Shown here piece by piece: positions 24,350-25,747 of a stretch of 64,000 bases of DNA. A program made the translations under genes and the position numbers. Positions within the stretch are counted from its first letter, which is position 1, and each line of letters begins with the position of its first letter. The DNA lies in NCBI GenBank assembly GCA_021776685.1, contig JAJFFJ010000043.1:124001-188000 (forward strand). The letters are read 5' to 3'. Under the pieces are notes generated by a model. It worked only from the letters and a program-made list of their open reading frames with translations, was not told the DNA's origin and ran no database searches. The stretch is from Alphaproteobacteria bacterium. Its GTDB lineage: Bacteria > Pseudomonadota > Alphaproteobacteria > Bin65.

Positions 24350-25747
24350 TTATTCGGCCGCAAGCCGCGGCGCGTATGGTGCATCGACGCCGGCTCTGGC
24401 TACCACCGTAGCAGCGGCGACGGCCACTTCCTGCAACAATGCGGCTTCATCGACCGTTAGAATTTCACGATCCCGCATTACCAGATTGCCGTCGATGATC
24501 GAGTCCCGCACATCCGCACCGCGCGCACTATAGACCAAAGCGGCTTCAATATCGAACGTTGGCATCAAGTGTGGTTGCAGCAGATCGATTGTGATGATGT
24601 CGGCGCGCTGGCCGGGCGCAATCCTGCCCACAGTATCGCCAAGTCCCAGTACGGAGGCGCCTTCGCTTGTCGCCATTCGGAGCGCCCGGTCACGGGTCAG
24701 CGCCTGCGGGTCGTTGGCCGCGGTCTTCGCCGTGGCGCATGCATACTTCATGCTCTCGAACAGATCCTGTCCGCAATTGGCCGCCGGTCCGTTCGACCCC
24801 AGACCGCAGGTCAGGCCGGCGTCGAGAAATTTTTTTATCTCCGGAAAACCGGTGCCCCAGAAAAGACGGGTCTGAGGATCGAAGATGACCCGGGTGTCGG
24901 TTTCCGCCAGTAGCTCGATTTCACGGTCGTTGAGGTCGGACACGGCCACCGCCTGAACATCCGGGCCCAGGCAGCCCATTTCGTGCAGGAGTTCGACGTT
25001 TCGCACCGGCCGCCCAAAGACTTGTTCGATCTTGGTGTTGAACTCGGGTGACTCGGCCACATGCTGGTGGATCATCAGTCCGTGCGCGTCCGCAAGATCC
25101 CGGGTTTGTCTGAAATGCTCCGGCGTCATGGACCAGGGCAAAAGGGGAGAGATAAAGAGGCCAAGGCGCCCGTCTTCGGTACCCTTCCAGGTCTCGGCCA
25201 GGCTGCCAATGCGCTCAATCTGCTCTTCGCCGGTCTCGATGAAATCTGGGGCGAAGTTCCGGCCGGTGAAGCCGCGGGCAACGATGCCGCGGATACCACT
25301 GTCGCGCATGGCGCGGAATGCAGCGTCTTCAGGCGCCCAGTCGCCGGCGTGTGGTGCGAAGATGTTCTCCACCAGTGTCGTGTTGCCGTTGCGGATATTC
25401 TCGATGCACCCCAGCATCTCTGCGAGATAAAGGGTGTCGCTGTCGAACGAGCGGATCAGGGGCATCTCGCGGTCGAGCCACTCCAGCAATGTCAGTTCCG
25501 CGCCGAGCGTCCGCCCGAAAATCATGCAGAGATGGGAGTGCCCGTTGATCAGCCCAGGCATGATCAGTTTGCCAGCCGCCGGAATATCGATTTCTGCAGT
25601 GAAGTCGGGCGCTTGGTCCGCGGGCCCGGCATAAGTGATCTCGCCTCCGGTGACCTGCACCTCGGCGTCGTCGAGGGTACCTGCTTCACCGGGGGCGGCC
25701 AGGAGGACGCCACCGTGAAGCCTGATCGTTGGTCGGACATCAGACAT
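24350..25747 (-). CDS. amidohydrolase-fold protein with altered metal and catalytic positions
   Basis: A 465-residue protein like TRZ/ATZ and guanine-deaminase-type amidohydrolases. The first metal motif is normal (INGHSHLC, HxH), and HQHVAES supplies the next histidine. The segment that usually reads AHC before the (D/E)-E-I-x-L-L-A-E helix reads [16 protein letters not shown], and the catalytic aspartate (GTDG) is asparagine ([13 protein letters not shown]). It may be inactive, metal-free or altered in chemistry. Start 25747 is the ATG just inside a TTG. It lies 139 bp after the permease gene and 61 bp before the dioxygenase gene, so it probably belongs to the uptake and ring-cleavage operon. 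Confidence 0.82.

What the first reader, a model, noticed from the sequence alone, without database searches (positions are those of the whole stretch)
24350..25747. Amidohydrolase homologue with missing metal histidine and Asp-to-Asn change
The usual AHC histidine position reads VAVS, and the catalytic GTDG aspartate reads GSNG. The HxH and the later histidine (HQHVAES) remain, and the frame is full length, so it is not a decaying pseudogene by appearance. It may be a regulatory or binding protein, or it may use a different metal set. It sits between an importer and a dioxygenase, where a normal deaminase would be expected.
Basis: partly seen in the sequence, partly recalled or inferred. Interest (0 to 1): 0.5.

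Follow-up and report, generated by a model that had tools for sequence, protein, structure and literature searches.

The report
Amidohydrolase enzyme with stripped-down metal site
A bacterial enzyme-like protein, made beside an importer and the enzyme that breaks open 2-aminophenol, has lost two residues that its relatives use at their metal centre, and related bacteria keep the same losses, so it looks like a working variant and not a broken gene.

Summary
Window 24350-25747 (minus, 465 aa) is a TRZ/ATZ-type amidohydrolase. The barrel-strand-6 His is Ala268 and the strand-8 Asp is Asn319; HxH (70/72), His229 and Glu232 are kept. The window protein and 15 distinct orthologues (51-98% identical; alpha-, beta- and gammaproteobacteria) all have HHHE, Ala/Gly and Asn at these places, and share new Asp271, Arg294 and Trp297. 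One further relative (37%) has Ser and Asn. All 31 other homologues compared keep His and Asp. dN/dS is 0.06-0.28, so this is selected, not decay; the tree fits one origin. The dioxygenase next door is 2-aminophenol 1,6-dioxygenase. In the 16 loci the variant lies near an ABC importer in 16, the dioxygenase in 10 and an esterase/arylformamidase-like hydrolase in 12. Best reading: an active metalloenzyme with a three-His, carboxylate-free site that helps turn an imported precursor into 2-aminophenol; the nearest precedent is TrzN (Asp to Thr). Metal, substrate and chemistry are inferred. A non-catalytic protein and an O2-using enzyme (as reported for KpiC) are not excluded. New variant of a known kind; no published account turned up in ten searches of an open-access library.

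The parts
24350..25747 (-). Variant TRZ/ATZ-type amidohydrolase, 465 aa (here 'AHvar')
   Evidence: 15 distinct orthologues; model
25532..25540 (-). HSH motif, H70 and H72 (kept metal-ligand positions)
25052..25063 (-). H229-V-A-E232: kept strand-5 His and catalytic-Glu position
24944..24946 (-). A268, where relatives have the strand-6 His
24935..24937 (-). D271, invariant in the 16-member clade, in 0 of 31 controls
24857..24868 (-). R294-L-F-W297, invariant in the clade; controls have N at 294 in 25 of 31 and W at 297 in 0 of 31; low confidence in the model
24791..24793 (-). N319, where relatives have the strand-8 metal Asp
23338..24288 (-). 2-aminophenol 1,6-dioxygenase beta (catalytic) subunit, AmnB/CnbCb (ORF open from 24384; ATG at 24288 taken as start; my queries began one codon before it)
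   Evidence: 3vsg_B E 4.6e-175; 82% to CnbCb of Comamonas CNB-1
22473..23285 (-). 2-aminophenol 1,6-dioxygenase alpha subunit, AmnA/CnbCa (lacks the HPPH and HSPH histidines of the beta subunit)
   Evidence: 3vsg_A E 1.2e-100; sequences
20859..22448 (-). Gamma-glutamyltranspeptidase-like gene, last of the run
   Evidence: PF01019 476 bits; TIGR00066 312.5 bits, below its cut-off 357.85
25890..26828 (-). ABC importer permease
   Evidence: PF02653
26812..27858 (-). ABC importer permease
   Evidence: PF02653
27855..29384 (-). ABC importer double ATPase
   Evidence: PF00005, 2 stretches
29409..30509 (-). BMP/PnrA-type solute-binding protein (ORF; true start uncertain)
   Evidence: PF02608

Best explanation
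AHvar is an active, metal-dependent member of the TRZ/ATZ branch of the amidohydrolase superfamily with a rebuilt active site. The metal is held by H70, H72 and H229 without the usual Asp carboxylate; E232 serves as acid/base; N319 and A268 replace the pair that normally holds or activates the water, and R294, W297 and D271 reshape the pocket. It works in an upper catabolic pathway: the ABC importer brings in an o-aminophenol precursor (an amide, carbamate or benzoxazole-type heterocycle), AHvar opens or hydrolyses it, a second hydrolase (esterase/arylformamidase-like in most loci, possibly the GGT-like protein here) completes release of 2-aminophenol, and AmnBA cleaves the ring. Shown: the residues, their conservation, purifying selection, the neighbours. 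Inferred: metal binding, catalysis, order of steps, substrate.
For: H70, H72, H229, E232 with A/G and N in the window protein and 15 of 15 distinct orthologues (154 invariant columns). dN/dS 0.06-0.28 over 12 pairs. Canonical fold: AtzA Foldseek E 1.1e-36, TM 0.87; TrzN VIA Z 46.2-46.5. TrzN shows that a TRZ enzyme can work without the strand-8 Asp (Thr325), with three His on Zn and Glu241 (passages of PMC4356373). Neighbours over 16 loci: importer ATPase within 4.6 kb in 16, AmnB and AmnA within 5 kb in 10, alpha/beta hydrolase within 3 kb in 12. In L010 the run goes on to an AmnC-type dehydrogenase (TIGR03216, 831 bits, cut-off 693). In a sister genus an importer permease, an AmnA-like domain and an arylformamidase-like domain are one protein.
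Against: No substrate, metal or activity is known. Loss of both Asp and strand-6 His removes two groups that matter in relatives: H290A abolished NatAM activity. TrzN keeps its strand-6 His, so AHvar goes further than the precedent. The Glu is less telling than the His: 23 of 31 control homologues have it, 8 do not. Sister genomes G001-G007 have AmnBA (84-85% for AmnB) without AHvar at E<=1e-80, so AHvar is not needed for every AmnBA pathway. 6 of 16 loci have no AmnBA within 5 kb, and no arylformamidase-like gene was found in the window (five are elsewhere in the genome).
Confidence: 0.5

Rival explanations
1. Non-catalytic pseudoenzyme: AHvar has lost hydrolysis and serves as a scaffold, allosteric partner or small-molecule sensor for the importer or for AmnBA, much as AmnA is a histidine-poor partner of AmnB.
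For: Two catalytic positions are lost in every member. The neighbouring alpha subunit is itself a histidine-depleted partner (sequences). New invariant residues D271, R294, W297.
Against: H70, H72, H229 and E232 are kept in all 16 and in the more distant L057; a pure scaffold has no evident reason to keep them. The gene occurs with different importer types.
Confidence: 0.18
2. O2-using enzyme: the three-His site binds Fe(II) and cleaves or oxygenates a ring, as reported for KpiC, an amidohydrolase-family protein that opens 3,4-dihydroxypyridine with gain of two oxygens.
For: KpiC: product 32 Da heavier than its substrate; KpiB alpha/beta hydrolase and a proposed FAA hydrolase KpiD in the same cluster. 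Three-His iron without a carboxylate is known in other ring-cleaving folds (recalled). AHvar also sits near alpha/beta hydrolases, and FAA hydrolase genes lie in L010, L011 and the window.
Against: AmnBA already supplies the ring-cleaving oxygenase. E232, the hydrolytic Glu position, is kept.
Confidence: 0.12
3. Condensing or dehydrating enzyme, or reversal of such chemistry, like NatAM, which closes benzoxazoles from o-aminophenol esters.
For: NatAM is in the same fold group (profile hit 6sj0 E 1.3e-32; VIA Z 38.3) and handles o-aminophenols.
Against: NatAM needs H290, the strand-6 His, which AHvar lacks; the AHvar context is import and breakdown, not synthesis.
Confidence: 0.1
4. Ordinary deaminase with a tolerated drift of two residues.
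For: Best single NCBIfam match is 5'-deoxyadenosine deaminase, 278 bits.
Against: That score is far below the cut-off of 522; the changes are fixed in all 16 and come with further clade-specific residues; the closest canonical relative L040 keeps H and D.
Confidence: 0.05

Closest known systems
AtzA, atrazine chlorohydrolase (PDB 4v1x)
   Same: Best profile match and best Foldseek match; same HxH, strand-5 His and Glu
   Different: AtzA ligates metal also with His276 and Asp327; AHvar has Ala and Asn there; 26-27% identity
TrzN, triazine hydrolase (PDB 3ls9)
   Same: Only named relative met in these calls whose strand-8 Asp is replaced (Thr325), with three His and Glu241
   Different: TrzN keeps His274; its replacement is Thr, not Asn; 21-23% identity
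NatAM, benzoxazole-forming amidohydrolase (PDB 6sj0)
   Same: Fold group and o-aminophenol chemistry
   Different: Keeps His290 and Asp345, biosynthetic, 20% identity
KpiC, 3,4-dihydroxypyridine ring-opening enzyme
   Same: Amidohydrolase-family protein in a heterocycle breakdown cluster with an alpha/beta hydrolase and an FAA hydrolase
   Different: Reported nearest to enamidase; reported dioxygenase; residues could not be compared
CbaA, 6-chloro-2-benzoxazolinone hydrolase of Pigmentiphaga
   Same: Genus Pigmentiphaga; benzoxazinoid breakdown through aminophenol intermediates (seen only as cited in PMC11297187)
   Different: Described there as 42.6% similar to the lactonase BxdA, so probably another fold; the original paper is not held

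Membership tests
Amidohydrolase superfamily, TRZ/ATZ branch | Fold: barrel plus beta-sandwich, full-length match | tested here: met
   pLDDT 83.7, pTM 0.89; 4f0s Z 47.3, rmsd 2.4 over 428 residues; PF01979
Amidohydrolase superfamily, TRZ/ATZ branch | HxH after strand 1 and His after strand 5 with HxxE Glu | tested here: met
   H70, H72, H229, E232 in all 16
Amidohydrolase superfamily, TRZ/ATZ branch | His after strand 6 | tested here: not met
   A or G in all 16, S in L057; H in 31 of 31 controls
Amidohydrolase superfamily, TRZ/ATZ branch | Asp after strand 8 (metal ligand) | tested here: not met
   N in all 16 and in L057; D in 31 of 31 controls
TrzN metal-site subgroup | Strand-8 Asp replaced by Thr | tested here: not met
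   Asn, not Thr
TrzN metal-site subgroup | Strand-6 His kept to hold the zinc water | tested here: not met
   Ala268; TrzN His274
Named deaminase families of NCBIfam (guanine, MTA/SAH, 5'-deoxyadenosine, SsnA, 8-oxoguanine) | Score above the curated cut-off | tested here: not met
   25 of 25 rows shown (of 39) are below cut-off
KpiC-type amidohydrolase-fold dioxygenase | Same active-site residues; O2-dependent ring cleavage | not testable with these tools
   KpiC sequence not obtained; activity needs a bench test
NatAM-type condensing amidohydrolase | Essential strand-6 His (H290) | tested here: not met
   Ala/Gly there; role
2-aminophenol 1,6-dioxygenase (the two neighbours) | Beta and alpha subunits close to characterised CnbC/AmnBA | tested here: met
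   3vsg_B E 4.6e-175, 3vsg_A E 1.2e-100; 82% to CnbCb
Benzoxazolinone hydrolase CbaA | Sequence similarity to CbaA | not tested
   Sequence not obtained; paper not held

The most novel reading that the evidence does not exclude
A new metal-centre class of the amidohydrolase superfamily: three His and a Glu, with neither the strand-8 carboxylate nor the strand-6 His, stable across alpha-, beta- and gammaproteobacteria and dedicated to a natural upper pathway that makes 2-aminophenol from an imported, still unknown precursor, possibly by a reaction other than plain hydrolysis (ring opening with or without O2).
Probability: 0.35. Interest if true: 0.7.

Novelty: new variant of a known kind. Interest (0 to 1): 0.5.

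Why it matters
If active, it shows that this superfamily can work without the carboxylate that usually holds the metal and without the strand-6 His, one step beyond TrzN, whose replaced Asp was called unique in the family. It also gives a handle on an open question: for the 2-aminophenol microcompartment of Actinobacteria the authors write that the precursor of 2-aminophenol is unknown and argue for a natural one. The importer-AHvar-hydrolase-AmnBA operon is a concrete candidate upper pathway in named strains (Alloalcanivorax marinus, Pigmentiphaga kullae). It also warns that automatic names (deaminase, chlorohydrolase) could mislead here.

Tried and rejected
Pseudogene or sequencing error: rejected (same changes in 15 distinct orthologues, dN/dS 0.06-0.28). 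Misalignment with a shifted His or Asp: rejected. Mimosine/3,4-dihydroxypyridine pathway with the LigB pair as PydA: considered and dropped after searches placed the pair in 2-aminophenol 1,6-dioxygenase. Riboflavin/lumichrome breakdown (PMC12746152): no match of gene content seen in the passages. CbaA identity: could not be tested. Viral contigs: 76 stretches matched a pattern, none encodes a relative by tblastn. Plasmids: 36 records, all below 60% identity; 25 listed, residues not tallied. More of the L057 type were sought in 200 relatives of G492: only G492 itself and three genomes that hold the 16-clade protein hit at E<=1e-60.

Limits of the controls: the 31 control homologues are best matches from one draw of 142 genomes of the class plus L002, L003, L040 and the second amidohydrolase of L043, not a random sample of the superfamily; one (L082) has gaps at two of the kept positions; the second window amidohydrolase (55367-56860) did not pass the BLAST limit and was read by eye only. 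The genome-contig scan used two short peptide patterns, so other members may be missed.

Papers: PMC7356986 abstract, passages and section 3.4; PMC12746152 abstract and passages; PMC7204872 passages and the NatAM structure section; PMC4356373, PMC3637104, PMC11297187, PMC3790839, PMC10470539, PMC12118335 passages. All others only as search listings. The absence of a published account rests in an open-access library only. Recalled without a call: that cupin-type ring-cleaving dioxygenases use three-His iron; that the CnbC alpha subunit lacks iron; that 2-aminomuconate deaminase is a RidA-family protein.

Full report
What is there. The gene at 24350-25747 (minus) encodes 465 aa with ATG at 25747. 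It matches Amidohydro_1 (157 bits) and, among NCBIfam models, best 5'-deoxyadenosine deaminase at 278 bits against a cut-off of 522; none of the 25 rows shown of 39 reaches its cut-off. Solved relatives include MTA/SAH deaminases, AtzA and TrzN.

The residues. H70 and H72 (HSH), H229 and E232 (HQHVAES) align with the metal HxH, the strand-5 His and the catalytic Glu. The strand-6 His is A268 and the strand-8 Asp is N319 (codons rechecked). In the AlphaFold model (18 sequences, pLDDT 83.7, pTM 0.89) strand 6 is 264-267 and strand 8 is 314-316, so both changed residues follow the strands as the His and Asp do in relatives; residues 294-301 and 322-325 have pLDDT under 50, and no metal is modelled. 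The fold is the ordinary one: Foldseek best AtzA (E 1.1e-36, TM 0.87), VIA best 4f0s Z 47.3, TrzN Z 46.2-46.5. In AtzA the strand-6 His and strand-8 Asp both bind the metal; in TrzN the His only holds the zinc water and the Asp is a Thr, called unique in the family (passages).

Conservation. A scan of the GTDB collection with two peptide patterns gave 7 loci, and genome searches gave more: matches in 2 of 11 genomes of the family (E<=1e-80), 2 of 385 of the class (the window's own and a canonical relative), 7 of 250 relatives of Pigmentiphaga kullae (six orthologues and G492), 2 of 398 of the phylum (own and G811), 5 of 193 relatives of G811 (eight proteins), the last four at E<=1e-70. Pigmentiphaga is betaproteobacterial and Alloalcanivorax gammaproteobacterial. 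All 16 have H70, H72, H229, E232, A or G at 268, D271, R294, W297 and N319. L057 (G492, 37%) has S and N at the two places but not D271, R294 or W297.

Controls. In one search, 33 hits were aligned with the family; leaving out a duplicate of L015 and L057, 31 of 31 have the strand-6 His and the strand-8 Asp, among them the closest canonical relative L040 (38-39%). At the other places the 31 have H70 31, H72 31, H229 30 (one gap), E232 23 (4 Q, 3 other, one gap), D271 0, R294 0, W297 0. So the Glu is not universal even in relatives with His and Asp. A tree of 48 rows puts the 16 in one clade (97/96), L057 next to it (100/99) and L040 next (99/90), which fits one origin of the loss. dN/dS for 12 chosen pairs is 0.061-0.279 (the widest pairs approach saturation). 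154 columns are invariant among the 16.

Neighbourhood. In the window eight genes run on the minus strand with overlaps or gaps of up to about 140 bases: BMP-type binding protein, double ATPase, two permeases, AHvar, AmnB, AmnA and a GGT-like protein. The dioxygenase is 2-aminophenol 1,6-dioxygenase: beta 82% identical to CnbCb of Comamonas CNB-1, PDB 3vsg best for both subunits. In L010 (Alloalcanivorax marinus) the order is IclR, AHvar, SsuC-like permease, SsuB-like ATPase, NMT1-type binding protein, alpha/beta hydrolase, AmnB, AmnA, AmnC-type dehydrogenase (TIGR03216 above cut-off), FAA hydrolase, acetaldehyde dehydrogenase; in L011 (Pigmentiphaga) the same first half lies opposite AmnB, AmnA and a RidA-family protein. 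Counts over the 16 loci: importer ATPase within 4.6 kb 16; AmnB and AmnA within 5 kb 10; alpha/beta hydrolase within 3 kb 12 (not window, L054, L067, L069). Without AmnBA within 5 kb: L064, L065, L015, L054, L067, L069; in G008 (the genome of L015) AmnBA is on another contig. The alpha/beta hydrolases of L015 and of the sister-genus fusion match kynurenine formamidase 4e11 (E 5e-13 and 1e-16), below a lipase as best hit; the one of L011 matches esterases and lipases and no formamidase among the 60 rows shown of 164, so 'formamidase' is only a hint.

Results that cut the other way. G001-G007 carry AmnBA (AmnB 84-85%) but no AHvar at E<=1e-80; in G003 an amidase and a dipeptide-type importer lie upstream. 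No arylformamidase-like gene was found in the window, though five (33-42%) lie elsewhere in its genome, and its AmnC-like gene (57-58%) is on another contig without the other queried amn genes beside it. NatAM without its strand-6 His made no product.

Mechanism. Keeping three His and the Glu while fixing Asn, Ala/Gly, Asp271, Arg294 and Trp297 is what one expects of a re-tuned metalloenzyme. The TrzN precedent shows that Zn on three His plus Glu can hydrolyse a heteroaromatic carbon without the Asp. The operon places AHvar between import and 2-aminophenol cleavage, so the most economical role is release of 2-aminophenol, or of an N-acyl form of it, from a heterocycle or amide. Benzoxazole and benzoxazolinone are chemical guesses; nothing here shows them. 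A KpiC-like O2 reaction remains open because KpiC is reported as a ring-opening oxygenase of this superfamily, but it is described as nearest to enamidase and could not be compared.

Verdict. It is a new variant of a known family, probably active, with unknown chemistry.

Noticed in passing
L103:6958-10029 (G005), L041:17297-20002 (G001), L042:1-2887 (G004); cut short in L037:18169-20001 (G003) and L039:10377-12464 (G008): In sister genera next to AmnBA, one ORF fuses a LivM-type importer permease, an AmnA-like LigB domain and an arylformamidase-like alpha/beta hydrolase: all three in L103 (1024 aa), L041 and L042, the first two in the truncated L037 and L039. A transporter fused to a ring-cleavage partner subunit suggests that import, hydrolysis and ring opening are physically coupled.
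   Followed up: partly
window 20859-22448: Gamma-glutamyltranspeptidase-like gene ends the AHvar-AmnBA run; below the NCBIfam GGT cut-off (312.5 against 357.85), so perhaps an acylase for N-acyl or gamma-glutamyl aminophenols.
   Followed up: no
L054:5273-6658, L067:2379-3740, L069:4483-5844: Three genomes of the Alloalcanivorax genus have a second AHvar copy with its own IclR, importer and two NMT1-type binding proteins; in G811 and G1003 it lies about 14 kb from the first copy.
   Followed up: partly
L057:7404-8750 (G492): A more distant relative with Ser and Asn at the two positions, next to a second TRZ-type amidohydrolase, a Liv-type importer and an alpha/beta hydrolase; no second one found in 200 relatives.
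   Followed up: partly
window 5284-6624: 2-hydroxyglutaryl-CoA dehydratase D-component-like protein (PF06050), about 16 kb from an O2-dependent ring-cleavage operon; an enoyl-CoA hydratase family gene lies at 2206-3363.
   Followed up: no
window 55367-56860: A second TRZ/ATZ-type amidohydrolase (497 aa) in the window; by eye it keeps the strand-6 His (AHCVWL) and strand-8 Asp (GVDA).
   Followed up: partly
window 33695-34675: DUF6282 protein beside an HpcH/HpaI aldolase and IclR and TRAP-transporter genes.
   Followed up: no
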